NCBI RefSeq assembly: GCF_019679435.2
Contig: NZ_CP139781.1
Location: 2,852,001-2,916,000, forward strand
DNA length: 64,000 nt
Direction: 5' to 3'
Origin: Actomonas aquatica
GTDB taxonomy: Bacteria > Verrucomicrobiota > Verrucomicrobiia > Opitutales > Opitutaceae
A program made the position numbers and the translations under genes. This document shows, piece by piece, positions 27,401 through 32,211 of this stretch (positions are counted from its first letter, which is position 1; the number at the start of each line of letters is the position of its first letter). The notes under the pieces were generated by a model that was given only the letters and a program-made list of their open reading frames with translations, was not told the DNA's origin and made no database searches.

Positions 27401-27758
27401 GGGGGTGTTCTGGATTCGACCTTTGGTTGGATTGTCTCGCTGCCGGCCGAGCATGAAGGTCTCTCGTTAAACCTCCTTCGAACCATAATAAATGGCACCT
27501 ACGAAGAAATGCCCCTCGCTGCTTAATTAACGTAGCGACGATCGCCCAGTGACGCCTGATAGCTGACGTGATCGCCGACATCAGGTATAGCGCATTCTGC
27601 GGCCCGCGGAGTTTGCGTCGTATCTTCGACCCGGGGGTTGGCTGACGTTTTGGCTGGGTTCACTGCCTGACGTCAGCGAGATCAAACTGAACCTATGCCG
27701 GTAGATGCGGGCCGAGAAGGCCAGAGGGACGCGGGTTCAATTCCCGCCACCTCCACCA
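27401..27758 (+). ncRNA. ssrA: tmRNA (transfer-messenger RNA), 358 nt
   Basis: tmRNA rescues ribosomes stalled on broken mRNAs and tags the nascent chain for proteolysis. The 5' end GGGGGTG (27401-27407) pairs over 7 bp with CACCTCC (27748-27754), followed by an encoded ACCA tail. The T arm GCGGG-TTCAATT-CCCGC precedes the acceptor stem. The 5' motif TTCTGGATTCGAC matches the conserved tRNA-like start. An internal frame ends in PLAA and stop. It is a one-piece, not permuted, tmRNA. A double hairpin terminator follows directly. Confidence 0.95.
27491..27526 (+). other. tmRNA tag-peptide reading frame (NGTYEEMPLAA)
   Basis: The frame AAT GGC ACC TAC GAA GAA ATG CCC CTC GCT GCT TAA encodes NGTYEEMPLAA, ending in the LAA degron read by ClpXP-type proteases. 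The preceding codons in frame are ATA ATA (27485-27490), not the usual GCN resume codon, so the exact first residue is unresolved. Confidence 0.85.
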
Positions 27759-27815
27759 ATTTTTGGCCCAGCCAAAAATTGCCCGCCATAGCCTCGTGCG
27801 AAGGCGGGCTTTTTA
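27758..27815 (+). terminator. Double hairpin terminator of ssrA
   Basis: AATTTTTGG (27758-27766) pairs perfectly with CCAAAAATT (27772-27780). It is followed by GCCCGCC (27781-27787) pairing with GGCGGGC (27803-27809) and a T run. This is a canonical rho-independent terminator. Confidence 0.85.
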
Positions 27816-27920
27816 TTTAACGCCCCTCGTGCCCCTCGCGACGGCGAGAATCGAGCCGCGTCCCGGGCGCTCCGCGCCCACGCGGGTGTCAAGCTTAGCC
27901 CGGCTGCCGCCGGGCTGGAC

Positions 27921-28028
27921 AATTCCCGCCACCTCCATCCGCCTTCGCCACGGCTTCGGCCGACTCCACCAATTTTTGGCTAAGCCAAAAATTGCCCGCC
28001 ATAGCCTCGTGCGAAGGCGGGCTTTTTT
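27921..28028 (+). repeat. Partial duplication of the ssrA 3' end plus its terminator
   Basis: AATTCCCGCCACCTCCA (27921-27937) repeats the tmRNA 3' end at 27739-27755. A 26-bp insertion follows, then CTCCACCAATTTTTGGC and an almost exact copy of both terminator hairpins (GCCCGCC 27994-28000, GGCGGGC 28016-28022, six T). The offset between terminator copies is 213 bp. The 3' end of ssrA is a classic integration site, so this looks like an attachment-site scar. The 110 bp between the copies holds no gene. Confidence 0.8.
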
Positions 28029-28047
28029 CACGCCCTTCCTGCCCGCC

Positions 28048-28850
28048 GGGGCCCCGAGTTGGAGTCCGTTTGAAGCATGGACCTACAAACTACAAAGCCT
28101 GACCCCTTTCCGGCTCCCCAGGCCTCCCACCGGCACAGACGCTTTTTAGGCTTTCTCCGGTTTCGATGGCAAAAATCCGTGTTTTATCGGTGTGATCCGT
28201 GGCCCGTATTTCATCTAACTAAGTAGAACTAAGGTCCGTAGTCCGGCGATGCTCATGGGGAAGCCGCGCCATGCATCGAACCAAACCACCTTGAGGGAAT
28301 TTCAAGACCACGGGGGTGAACCCCGGTCACGCCGCTGCAGACCGGGGCCCTTTCCGAGCCCCGAGTTGGAGTCCGTTTGAAGCATGGACCTACAAACTAC
28401 AAAGCCTGACCCCTTTCCTGACCCCTTTCCGGCCCCCTATTTCATCTAACTAAGTAGAACTAAGGTCCGTAGTCCGGCGATGCTCATGGGGAAGCCGCGC
28501 CATGCATCGAACCAAACCACCTTGAGGGAATTTCAAGACCAGGAGGGTGAACCCCGGTCACGCCGCTGCAGACCAGAGCCCTTCCAAGCCCCGAGTTGGA
28601 GTCCGTTTGAAGCATGGACCTACAAACTACAAAGCCTGACCCCATGCCGGCCCCGTTTGAAGCATGGACCTACAAACTACAAAGCCTGACCCTTTACGCG
28701 GCTTGACCCCTTACGCGGCTCCAAAGTCTACCAACTGATGACCAAACCACGGCGTCAAATGCGCGTATCCATATCTCGGCGACAGAAATAGACGACCACC
28801 CCCTCTAACTAAGCGCCATTCAGGCCTGACCCCTTATCCGGCGCAGGGAC
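28048..28850 (+). repeat. Cluster of dispersed repeat units left of the RT operon
   Basis: A unit of about 200 bp is present twice in direct orientation (starting near 28207 and 28438, offset 231 bp). It runs from TTCATCTAACTAAGTAGAAC through GTCCGGCGATGCTCATGGGG to ACTACAAAGCCTGACCCC. Shorter copies of the end segment are at about 28048-28105 and 28655-28690, and CCTGACCCC recurs near 28824. A related unit lies in inverted orientation at 32520-32760. The GCCTGACCCC ends recall REP-like repeats mobilised by tyrosine transposases, but no transposase gene is present. No protein gene is supported between 27759 and 28985. Confidence 0.75.
28137..28222 (-). repeat. Dispersed repeat shared with 37035-37110 (opposite orientation)
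   Basis: Read on the minus strand this segment contains TTAGATGAAATACGG, GGCCACGGATCACACCGATA and CATCGAAACCGGAGAA, closely matching the plus strand at 37041-37108. Roughly 70 bp are alike. It is a dispersed intergenic repeat of unknown mobility. Confidence 0.7.
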
Positions 28851-28985: not shown

Positions 28986-29098
28986 AAAAAAGCGCCACTC
29001 AGCCGCCAACCATCGTGTGTGGGATTGCTCCCCCAACCGATTCTGAAGCGGTTAAGCATCGTCCTCTGAAGAAAAATAACGTCGGAAGCCGAGTGGCT
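28986..29098 (-). ncRNA. Candidate DRT3-type ncRNA with CACACAC element
   Basis: Starting 5 bp after the stop of the second RT gene, GCCACTCGGC (29097-29088) can pair with GCTGAGTGGC (29003-28994) over 10 bp, one G-U included. TTTTTT follows (28991-28986), as at an intrinsic terminator. Inside lie a small hairpin, AACCG (29053-29049) with CGGTT (29039-29035), and the unpaired CCCACACACG (29023-29014). Known DRT3 systems carry an ncRNA whose ACACAC element templates an alternating GT strand. Sequence, place and strand all fit, but expression is not shown. The true 5' end may lie inside the RT gene. Confidence 0.7.
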
Positions 29099-29102
29099 GA
29101 AA

Positions 29103-31034
29103 CTACTCGTATGCGAGGATGTATTCTCTTTTCAAGAGATTATTCTCTAACCAACTACGATCGTTCCAATCGACGGTAATACCCCTGCCACTGAACTCAT
29201 TTATCAGGCGAGCTGCTGTAGTGCTCAGATTCTCTTTACTAATAATTTTTTCCGCGAGACGAACCCGGTCAGGCTCAGGGACCAGAGGGCAGGAAATGTA
29301 GTCAAGAAAGAACAGAAGCGTCTCTGTCGACCGTAGCCCAATTGGGCAATGACCAACGATTTTTGATCCTATATCCACAAGATCGCCCCGTAGCTGATCG
29401 TAGCTAACCTGGCTTTCAATGTATAATACAATGGTTACCCAAAGAAAGTAATAGCCCCCGTTGGAATCATAGCTTTCAATATTAGTGTAGTCAAAGCGGC
29501 GAATATGAGCAACAAAATGCTCTTCAAGAAAGCTGGGAGGTAGCCTATGCCGTTCATCCAACGCGGAGAGGATTAGGAGGATGTTCAAAATCTCCACCGA
29601 GAAATCAAGATTATTTCCATCGTCGAAAATCTCAATAGATTTTCTTCCGAGATCAAAAATCTTCTTCTGAATAGTTTCCTCGCCATCAGAAAAGTGGACT
29701 GCAGATGAATCAACTACCGCTTTAACAATTTTCGCTACCTTGTCAGTTGGAACAACGCGCGGGTCCATCGCGTGTATAAAGAAAATCAAATCAAGATCGA
29801 CGAGTAACCACATGAAGCTATCCCGAGTTGGCTCACCTCGTTCATTTGCCTTGGCGACAACTCGAATAAACTGCGCAATCTTTTTCTGAATTACCGAAAG
29901 CAAATAGTTTGAGACGCTTGCATACTGGACATCATGCTTCCTAAGAGCACCTTTAATGTCTGAAATTGCACGGTTGGCTGCACGCGAGGGGTTTCCGACC
30001 CTAGTTGGCAGGTTATCGCCATTTACGCGCCTAGAGTAGAATTTGTCCAAATGCGAAGAAACCTCGTGCTTGAACATAGAGATGTTAGTAATGAACGGGC
30101 GCCCAATTTGATTAGTTTTCGCTTCATTCAAATGAAGCTTGAAAAACGCCAACTCCTCTTCAAGGGCCTGAATAAATCTACCGTAGACACCCTCACCATT
30201 AGTGAAGATAAAGTAATCATCTACATATCGCCGAAAATCATAGTCCCTATTCTGTTCTATTTTAGAACTTGATAGCTTTCGAATCACACGAACATCGACC
30301 TCCTGAAGAATAATTTCAGCAAAAATTCGAGACATTTCAGGGCCAATAATTATGCCGTTAGTTTCCCGATAGTTGCTGTTTTGCATCAGTTGGTCGAATC
30401 TTCGGTCAAATCCGCCCTTTTTAGCTTTGTCGCGCTTTGCGACCCTTCGGCTCTTTGTCGCCCAGCTGATCGAATGAGTGTAGATTCCGTTAAAGCACTT
30501 AGCAACGTCCACCTGGGACATCCTCCGGAATCGTTTCTCAAGAGTCTGGTATTCGTATGACTCGTAAAAACGAAAAAGAAAGGAATACCTACCGTAGGCG
30601 AAGTAGGAACTACATTGAATGCTGTCTCTCCCCTCCTCTTCTACTCCGAGTGGTGAATTCGATTCACCAGTGGGGTTCTTACTTTTGAAAGAGCTCGCGA
30701 TCTTCGAGGGAAATCGAAGCGAACACTGCGACTTTCGGCAATAGAAGGTTATCAAGTCGCCAAAGGACTCGTAAAAATCACAAGCTTCGAGCTGTGCAAC
30801 GGGATGCATGATCGACAAGGTTCTCAACCCAGAGTTGGTCCGCTTAATACGATAATCGAGTGGCTTGAGAGCTCCGAGGGATCCAGTGAACAACTTCTCT
30901 AAAAAGTTCCGATTTCTGGTTGCTCGTTGATGAATCAAGGTATTCGAGAACCAAAGCGGGATCTCGTAAGGAAGCACTTCGGTAAGCAAGGGACGAAGCG
31001 CATCATTCTTGTTAATTTGTTGAATGCTACTCAT
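29103..31034 (-). CDS. drt3b: Defence reverse transcriptase, UG8-like second subunit of DRT3
   Basis: The 643-residue protein has a recognisable RT palm: motif A around VDVAKCFNGIYTHSI (Asp176), motif B around NGIIIGPEMSRIFAEIIL, and the catalytic RRYVDDYFIF (270-273). A long extra C-terminal region (about 380-643), mostly helical, lacks maturase, HNH or protease motifs. This excludes a group II intron protein and is unlike a retron RT. Size and pairing with a second, shorter RT match the UG8 component of DRT type 3, which as I recall makes the complementary strand of an alternating-dinucleotide DNA. Its start overlaps the upstream RT stop by 8 bp (ATGAGTAG), so the two are coupled. G+C is well below the flanks, a sign of acquisition. 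Confidence 0.82.
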   Translation of the reverse strand: MSSIQQINKNDALRPLLTEVLPYEIPLWFSNTLIHQRATRNRNFLEKLFTGSLGALKPLDYRIKRTNSGLRTLSIMHPVAQLEACDFYESFGDLITFYCRKSQCSLRFPSKIASSFKSKNPTGESNSPLGVEEEGRDSIQCSSYFAYGRYSFLFRFYESYEYQTLEKRFRRMSQVDVAKCFNGIYTHSISWATKSRRVAKRDKAKKGGFDRRFDQLMQNSNYRETNGIIIGPEMSRIFAEIILQEVDVRVIRKLSSSKIEQNRDYDFRRYVDDYFIFTNGEGVYGRFIQALEEELAFFKLHLNEAKTNQIGRPFITNISMFKHEVSSHLDKFYSRRVNGDNLPTRVGNPSRAANRAISDIKGALRKHDVQYASVSNYLLSVIQKKIAQFIRVVAKANERGEPTRDSFMWLLVDLDLIFFIHAMDPRVVPTDKVAKIVKAVVDSSAVHFSDGEETIQKKIFDLGRKSIEIFDDGNNLDFSVEILNILLILSALDERHRLPPSFLEEHFVAHIRRFDYTNIESYDSNGGYYFLWVTIVLYIESQVSYDQLRGDLVDIGSKIVGHCPIGLRSTETLLFFLDYISCPLVPEPDRVRLAEKIISKENLSTTAARLINEFSGRGITVDWNDRSWLENNLLKREYILAYE

Positions 31035-32211
31035 CTGACCATGCCTGCTTCAGCCGGTTGACCTTCCTCCTCGTGTAACTGACAACAGTTCCGTCTCGCG
31101 ATGCGCGGTAAAATGAGATCCTTCGAAGGCGGTCTCTCTGATCGGCTGTCAACCTGCTTCCAAATCTCGTGCCACCGGAAAGTATCTTATTCATGAATCC
31201 ATCGAAGACTTTCAGTTTCTCCAGCGAACTAATATAACGGTAATTGTATTTCAACCCCGACAGGACATCACCGGTATCGCTCTTCTTCACAATCTTTGAA
31301 CACGAGAGATATCTGCACCGCGCAAGCAGGGTTGAGAAGTCGCCGTCATTTTCAAAAGCGATAAATGACTTGATAATCCTCCGCTTGACCTTATTGATTT
31401 TATTTTTCGAGATCGAAATGATGACTTTCGGCGCATTGCTTCCGGTAGAAACTGTTTTGAAGTGGTATCCTAGGTAGGAGAAATCTGCGCTTCTCACATC
31501 ACAAACAAGACTCCGGGTTCCATCATTTCGCAGTTCAAGCTCAAGCTTCTGTAGCTCTTCGGCAATGAAATGCTTAACGTCGTTGACGGACTCAGAATCG
31601 GTAAGGACTACGATGTCATCAACATATCGCGCAAAGTAGAAGGTGCACGGCATCGCTTGAATGGCTCGATCAAAGGGCTCCATGTAGAGCTCTGACAATG
31701 TCGCGCTTAGCGCAATTCCCCTTGGAAGTCCCGAATTGCCATTTTCGAGCAGTTTCCCATTAAGTGATTCAATCATTGATAGGCTGCGATTGCTAAGGAG
31801 CATGTCACTCCGTAGCTTCTCTATCAGCTTCTCGAACCTTATGCTTTCGTAGAAGGCTCTGACATCTTCTCTAATGATAGAAAGCTGCCCACCATCGCCA
31901 AGTAGCGCGCGAATCTCGCGGATGATACGATTCCGATCTGACTGAACAACTTTGTAGATTCTTCTCAGGTGCCGATCGATGAGCTTGAGACCAAAATGAT
32001 CTTTAGCCTGGTTGAGCTTGATTGTGGTGTTCCCATTATGGGAACTCATAGATATGCCATCTATACGGAACGAGGATTTTTCGAGGGCAAGAAACATCGA
32101 ACGCATCACTGAGTCGATCTCGCTGGACCGAGACCATAAATCCCAGCGTTGCACGTCATTCCTCGAAATGACCTTTAACAAACTATCAGGACCTAGAGTT
32201 TGTTGAAGCAT
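31027..32211 (-). CDS. drt3a: Defence reverse transcriptase, UG3-like first subunit of DRT3
   Basis: The 394 residues form a compact RT: motif A SIIREDVRAFYESI (Asp116), motif B NSGLPRGIALSATLSELYM (161-178 region), and the catalytic ARYVDDIVVL (Asp198, Asp199). Then come the palm/thumb strands (FSYLGYHFK) and a basic C-terminus (RRKVNRLKQAW). There is no maturase, integrase or nuclease domain. Size, the partner RT directly downstream and the candidate ncRNA identify it as the UG3-class subunit of DRT3, reported to copy an ACACAC template in the ncRNA. The ATG at 32211 is the first gene of the operon. The base composition is AT-rich against its neighbours. The DRT3 assignment is from architecture, not from an alignment. 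Confidence 0.82.
   Translation of the reverse strand: MLQQTLGPDSLLKVISRNDVQRWDLWSRSSEIDSVMRSMFLALEKSSFRIDGISMSSHNGNTTIKLNQAKDHFGLKLIDRHLRRIYKVVQSDRNRIIREIRALLGDGGQLSIIREDVRAFYESIRFEKLIEKLRSDMLLSNRSLSMIESLNGKLLENGNSGLPRGIALSATLSELYMEPFDRAIQAMPCTFYFARYVDDIVVLTDSESVNDVKHFIAEELQKLELELRNDGTRSLVCDVRSADFSYLGYHFKTVSTGSNAPKVIISISKNKINKVKRRIIKSFIAFENDGDFSTLLARCRYLSCSKIVKKSDTGDVLSGLKYNYRYISSLEKLKVFDGFMNKILSGGTRFGSRLTADQRDRLRRISFYRASRDGTVVSYTRRKVNRLKQAWSDE

What the first reader, a model, noticed from the sequence alone, without database searches (positions are those of the whole stretch)
28986..29098. Candidate DRT3 ncRNA with an alternating CACACAC element directly after the RT pair
The sequence shows a 10-bp closing stem, an internal hairpin, an unpaired CACACAC and a T-run end, starting 5 bp after the second RT stop on the same strand. 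DRT3 systems are known to use an ncRNA with an ACACAC template for alternating-repeat DNA synthesis. This would be a template RNA in a lineage (Verrucomicrobiota) far from the studied enterobacterial examples.
Basis: partly seen in the sequence, partly recalled or inferred. Interest (0 to 1): 0.82.

Follow-up and report, generated by a model that had tools for sequence, protein, structure and literature searches.

The report
DRT3 template RNA in a verrucomicrobial genome
Two anti-phage reverse transcriptase genes are followed by a short structured RNA with an ACACAC template; this is a recognisable member of the known DRT3 defence system, in a bacterial group where it is rare.

Summary
Window 28986-29102 (minus) directly follows an intact Drt3a-Drt3b pair. 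It has a closing helix (11+5 bp), a GNRA-loop hairpin abutting ACACAC, and a T-run. 'Unpaired CACACAC' is not borne out: folds pair parts of it.

The fold alone would not convince; comparison does. Among 106 non-redundant drt3b loci (window included), 98 carry ACACAC on the sense strand within 300 nt of the stop, against 65 of 2112 control tiles and 1 of 106 antisense. A covariance model built from six homologues without the window gives one hit in the 64 kb, exactly here, but weakly (E 0.029); a whole-genome search with it returned nothing. Across eight sequences the closing helix is 97% paired, with two-sided changes at 9 of 14 pairs. Drt3b keeps the published dA gate, dC gate and priming tyrosine.

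Best reading: an ordinary DRT3 whose RNA templates poly(dTdG) while Drt3b makes poly(dCdA). Its Drt3b is sister to a gammaproteobacterial clade and lies in a low-GC island beside tmRNA, suggesting horizontal transfer. New member of a known kind. Expression, DNA products and defence were not tested.

The parts
31027..32211 (-). Drt3a (UG3, class 2 reverse transcriptase), 394 aa
   Evidence: PADLOC Drt3a 1.3e-101; PDB 9z6y_A Drt3a 6e-29; RYVDD catalytic motif in the translation
29103..31034 (-). Drt3b (UG8, class 1 reverse transcriptase), 643 aa, with dA gate E24, R71, catalytic D176 and D272/D273, F181, dC gate R236 and priming Y642
   Evidence: PADLOC Drt3b 4e-185; PDB 26cz_A 2e-96 and 9z6y_H 3e-73; residues mapped by alignment
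28986..29102 (-). DRT3 ncRNA, about 113 nt, ending in TTTTTT at 28986-28991; exact ends not known
   Evidence: fold z -3.4; covariance model without the window hits 28990-29101, E 0.029; P1 covariation
29081..29097 (-). P1 closing helix, 5' strand
28994..29010 (-). P1 closing helix, 3' strand
29021..29032 (-). hairpin GGGA-GCAA-UCCC directly 5' of the template (GNRA loop)
   Evidence: the counterpart in 5 of the 7 homologues has GAAA or GUAA at this place
29015..29020 (-). ACACAC template for Drt3a (CACACAC at 29015-29021)
   Evidence: hexamer downstream of drt3b in 98 of 106 loci

Best explanation
This is a DRT3 anti-phage operon with its cis-encoded template RNA. The RNA's two ends pair into a long helix (P1). 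A GNRA-loop hairpin and P1 frame a short ACACAC segment. Drt3a copies ACACAC into GT and resets repeatedly to make poly(dTdG). Drt3b, primed from its own Tyr642 and gated by Glu24 and Arg236, makes poly(dCdA) without a nucleic-acid template. The two strands anneal, and accumulation of the duplex during infection stops the cell. Shown here: both genes, the gate and priming residues, the RNA's position, the helix covariation and conservation of the hexamer. Inferred from published E. coli work: transcription, template use, the DNA products, the trigger and defence.
For: Drt3a and Drt3b identity. ACACAC sense-strand within 300 nt of the drt3b stop in 98 of 106 non-redundant loci, against 65 of 2112 tiles elsewhere, 31 of 636 tiles inside drt3b, 1 of 106 antisense, and a mean of 6.3 (maximum 13) in shuffles. 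P1: 14 pairs, 97.3% of cells paired, 9 pairs with changes on both sides over 8 sequences; whole-structure covariation score 0.42 against 0.19 shuffled and at most 0.09 when slid. On the six-homologue MAFFT alignment, made without the window and not fitted to a structure, P1 is 98.8% paired with 3 pairs changed on both sides. Held-out model: one hit in 64 kb at the right place and strand, full length. The window's 5'/3' helix beats all 97 swapped partners. Published mechanism: PMC13174585 (abstract, passages, sections 7 and 10 read).
Against: The held-out hit is marginal (16.6 bits, E 0.029). With filters off the next site scores 13.7 bits. A whole-genome search with R1 returned nothing, with 150 of 293 candidates scored. 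R1 finds, of 50 sources, only its three training loci given, L013 and the window; none of the other 45. R2, which includes the window, finds none of 41 more distant loci. So beyond its clade only the hexamer and general layout carry over, and the closing-helix swap test was not passed by 52 of 98 loci. One search's alignment was fitted to the structure. The predicted fold partly pairs the template, and the consensus fold of six homologues pairs the AC run with an upstream GU-rich stretch. Rfam has no match to the element. Eight of 106 loci lack the hexamer within 300 nt.
Confidence: 0.93

Rival explanations
1. The element is only the operon's 3' end: a long stem with a T-run that stops transcription or protects the mRNA, and CACACAC is there by chance.
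For: T-run directly after the stem; strong stems beside ACACAC are not rare in this GC-rich window (3 of 9 other sites reach -30 kcal/mol).
Against: The terminator scan finds no site here (my inference: the loop of about 70 nt is far beyond its limit). The hexamer recurs in 98 of 106 loci with one-strand bias. The helix sequence changes while pairing is kept, and the hexamer does not change in the eight aligned sequences.
Confidence: 0.03
2. A real DRT3 ncRNA in a system that no longer works, or works poorly, in this host: a decaying island acquired by transfer.
For: Low GC (0.43-0.50 against 0.55-0.66 around it), next to tmRNA with partial copies of its 3' end and other repeats; not found in the seven genus relatives searched; template one AC unit shorter than in six of seven sister sequences.
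Against: Both genes are uninterrupted and all mapped active-site residues are intact; P1 pairing is kept.
Confidence: 0.1
3. The RNA is mainly a scaffold or regulator, and the AC segment is not copied.
For: The Frontiers review describes a structural role for the ncRNA in the Drt3 assembly (PMC13314766, passages); the template is partly paired in the folds.
Against: In E. coli, mutating the ACACAC segment removes poly(dTdG) and defence (PMC13174585, passages); the hexamer is invariant in the eight aligned sequences and present in 98 of 106 loci.
Confidence: 0.03

Closest known systems
E. coli DRT3 (EcoDRT3; Wang et al. 2026, PMC13174585; PDB 26cz appears to be its Drt3b)
   Same: ncRNA downstream of drt3b, ACACAC in the RNA, E22/R241/Y666 counterparts, catalytic residues
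   Different: Drt3b 32% identical to the E. coli LR-45 relative; RNA not found by our clade model outside its clade; different host phylum. That 26cz is EcoDRT3b is inferred from residue numbering.
Drt3a/Drt3b chains of PDB 9z6y/9z6z (presumably Deng et al. 2026, not read)
   Same: Both proteins match along most of their length
   Different: Lower-scoring Drt3b match than 26cz (250.7 against 327.1 bits)
   Same: Sister clade (SH-aLRT 99); P1 helix, ACACACGA motif, and in most of them a hairpin 5' of the template
   Different: Drt3b about 41% identical (37% for L013); six of the seven have one more AC unit; no T-run directly after P1
DRT9, DRT10 (class 2 RTs with template RNAs)
   Same: The EcoDRT3 RNA loop is said to lie like the DRT9/DRT10 template (PMC13174585, passages)
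   Different: Single RT and other templates (recalled); no test here beyond PADLOC scores

Membership tests
DRT3 | Adjacent Drt3a (UG3) and Drt3b (UG8) genes | tested here: met
   PADLOC best hits Drt3a 1.3e-101 and Drt3b 4e-185; genes overlap by 8 bp
DRT3 | Catalytic residues in both RTs | tested here: met
   RYVDD in both translations; D176, D272, D273 in Drt3b
DRT3 | Protein-template gates of Drt3b (E22, R241) and priming Tyr (Y666) | tested here: met
   E24, R236, Y642 aligned; the same letters in 95, 106 and 104 of 106 loci, with D for E in 9
DRT3 | ncRNA downstream of drt3b, same strand, with ACACAC | tested here: met
   sequence, position and covariation; transcription not testable here
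DRT3 | Template in an open loop | tested here: inconclusive
   partly paired in the single-sequence fold; the alignment fold of six homologues also pairs part of it
DRT3 | Match to the published DRT3 ncRNA covariance model | not testable with these tools
   the model is not held; Rfam gave no match to the element; own model R1 used instead
DRT3 | Alpha-repeat C-terminal domain and hexamer of Drt3b | not tested
   only sequence alignment along 26cz; no structure was predicted
DRT3 | Poly(dTdG)/poly(dCdA) products and phage defence | not testable with these tools
   needs expression experiments

The most novel reading that the evidence does not exclude
The DRT3 RNA is a fast-evolving scaffold whose most constant part is an AC template that can grow or shrink by repeat units (ACAC to nine letters or more) while the protein gates of Drt3b stay fixed. 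In a few lineages (Snodgrassella L024, L039) no AC template is found within 300 nt of drt3b although both RTs and the gates are kept, so there the Drt3a strand may have another sequence, or the RNA may lie elsewhere.
Probability: 0.25. Interest if true: 0.6.

Novelty: new member of a known kind. Interest (0 to 1): 0.4.

Why it matters
It places a complete DRT3, template RNA included, in a verrucomicrobial genome. It also supplies compensatory changes that support the RNA's closing helix independently of the E. coli experiments. Both halves of the mechanism, the RNA template and the protein gates, are conserved together across several bacterial phyla. The shorter template and the few loci without the hexamer give natural variants for testing how long the template must be.

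Tried and rejected
Rfam covariance search over the operon: only the neighbouring tmRNA passed its threshold. MAFFT alignments with the window or L013 misplaced P1, so the model was built on six rows and the other two were added by cmsearch. R1 in the whole genome: nothing, with 150 of 293 candidates scored. R2, with the window included, in 41 of the more distant loci held: nothing. Synteny of the insertion site: in G001 the tmRNA lies at about 0.23 Mb and the 84% homologue of the TonB receptor at about 3.9 Mb, so no empty-site comparison was possible; the L144 stretch was fetched and not used. Swapped-partner helix test across loci: 46 of 98 within the best 5%, 52 of 98 not, so this simple layout is not shown for about half of the family. 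Promoter- and terminator-like sites: no more than in shuffles. No structure was predicted. Fetched and not used further: L152.

Full report
What is there. On the minus strand the window holds two overlapping genes: 31027-32211 (394 aa) and 29103-31034 (643 aa). PADLOC profiles name them Drt3a (1.3e-101) and Drt3b (4e-185). The solved chains nearest in sequence are 9z6y_A (Drt3a, 6e-29) for the first and 26cz_A (2e-96) and 9z6y_H (Drt3b, 3e-73) for the second. Drt3b keeps the counterparts of the published dA gate E22 (E24), R71 (R71), catalytic D182 and D278 (D176, D272), F187 (F181), dC gate R241 (R236) and priming Y666 (Y642) (alignment; residue roles from PMC13174585 section 7). That 26cz is the EcoDRT3b of that paper is my inference from the residue numbering.

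The element. Starting five bases after the drt3b stop, the strand reads a 5' P1 strand (29097-29081), about 50 nt of less certain fold, a hairpin GGGA-GCAA-UCCC (29032-29021), ACACAC (29020-29015), the 3' P1 strand (29010-28994) and TTTTTT (28991-28986). The fold has z -3.4 and 0 of 200 shuffles are as good. The template is not simply open: parts of CACACAC pair weakly, and the consensus fold of six homologues also pairs the AC run with an upstream stretch. Alone this would be weak evidence: this site has the second strongest neighbouring helix of the ten ACACAC sites in the 64 kb, but three of the nine others also reach -30 kcal/mol.

Comparison: the hexamer. The three phage-record hits were not fetched, and L112 gave no match in the right orientation. 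Of 133 loci with a match, the window included, 6 were dropped: no stop or too little sequence in L045, L050, L069 and L131; broken or very distant in L071 and L111. After removing near-identical ones, 106 remained. ACACAC lies within 300 nt of the stop on the sense strand in 98 of 106. It lies on the antisense strand in 1 of 106, in 65 of 2112 control tiles and in 31 of 636 tiles inside drt3b. Shuffles give a mean of 6.3 and a maximum of 13. The eight without it: L070 has CACACA; L030 and L062 CACAC; L040 ACACA at most; L019 only ACAC within 300 nt, though CACACAC at 365 nt; L120 a drt3b frame that ends early; and the two Snodgrassella loci L024 and L039 no ACAC within 300 nt. All eight keep both gates. 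An E. coli relative fetched later, L151, also has the hexamer.

Comparison: the helix. The window's Drt3b is sister to seven sequences from Gammaproteobacteria or their families (SH-aLRT 99, quick tree of 104 rows): L012, L013, L018, L042, L113, L114, L126. All seven keep both RTs and ACACAC. A covariance model from six of them, without the window and L013, finds one site in the 64 kb: 28990-29101 (-), full length, E 0.029. The same model finds L013's counterpart at a similar score, and none of 45 other sources beyond its training loci. With filters off the window hit stays first, but the next is only 2.9 bits lower, and the whole-genome search returned nothing. So the model score alone is marginal; its coincidence with the stretch after drt3b is what counts. 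On the eight-sequence alignment P1 has 97.3% of cells paired and 9 of 14 pairs with changes on both sides. The whole structure's covariation score is 0.42, against 0.19 in shuffles and at most 0.09 when slid (that alignment was fitted to the model). On the six homologues aligned by MAFFT alone P1 is 98.8% paired with 3 pairs changed on both sides. Six of the eight sequences have a GNRA loop in the hairpin 5' of the template (read; L018 and L013 do not). Six of the seven homologues have one AC unit more than the window.

Limits of the comparison. A model including the window finds none of 41 more distant loci. A swapped-partner test of a helix closing around the template puts 46 of 98 loci in the best 5% (about 5 expected) and 52 not; the window's own helix beats all 97 swaps. 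The E. coli LR-45 RNA has no unusual folding energy (z -0.8), but its fold also has a closing helix around ACACAC.

Origin. The operon lies in a stretch of 0.43-0.50 GC with 0.55-0.66 around it, just beyond the tmRNA gene (27401-27758). An 18-nt copy of the tmRNA end recurs at 27920. Apart from the window's own genome, Drt3b was found in none of 387 sampled genomes of the phylum at E 1e-30 and in one of 57 relatives at E 1e-20 (G017). G017's Drt3b (L002) sits elsewhere in the tree, on a long branch whose place is unsure. Horizontal acquisition of the window's copy is the likely reading, and G017's was probably separate.

Mechanism and known work. PMC13174585 (abstract, passages, sections 7 and 10 read) reports for E. 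coli DRT3 that Drt3a copies ACACAC into poly(dTdG), that Drt3b makes poly(dCdA) by protein templating, and that the duplex drives abortive infection. PMC13314766 was seen in passages. The other papers of the DRT3 searches and the one paper for defence RTs with Verrucomicrobi* were seen as listings only. I saw no mention of this locus in what I read. The published homologue tables and the covariance model of 41 systems were not available to me, so I cannot say that this locus or clade is absent from them.

Verdict. This is a member of DRT3 with its template RNA, of moderate interest for its host, its covariation evidence and its short template.

Noticed in passing
window 27401-27758 (+) and 27738-28027: tmRNA gene (tag GTYEEMPLAA) with an 18-nt copy of its 3' end at 27920 and a 69-nt repeat at 27746/27959, as at a used integration site next to the DRT3 island.
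   Followed up: partly
window 28042-28708: Four copies of an 80-nt repeat and two of a 150-nt repeat between tmRNA and the ncRNA.
   Followed up: no
window 2932-26190 (-): One open frame of 7752 aa with a highly repetitive sequence; Pfam gave only a sub-cutoff match for the 4730-aa part scanned.
   Followed up: no
L024 and L039, 300 nt after the drt3b stop: Snodgrassella DRT3 loci with both RTs and intact Drt3b gates but no ACAC-type template found.
   Followed up: partly
L019, L030, L040, L062, L070: DRT3 loci with only shorter AC runs (ACAC to CACACA) within 300 nt downstream of drt3b; L019 has CACACAC at 365 nt.
   Followed up: partly
L042, L012, L018, L113, L114 upstream of the hairpin: A GUGUUUGU-like stretch 5' of the hairpin could pair with the AC template in the free RNA (alignment fold); the window has a weaker analogue.
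   Followed up: no
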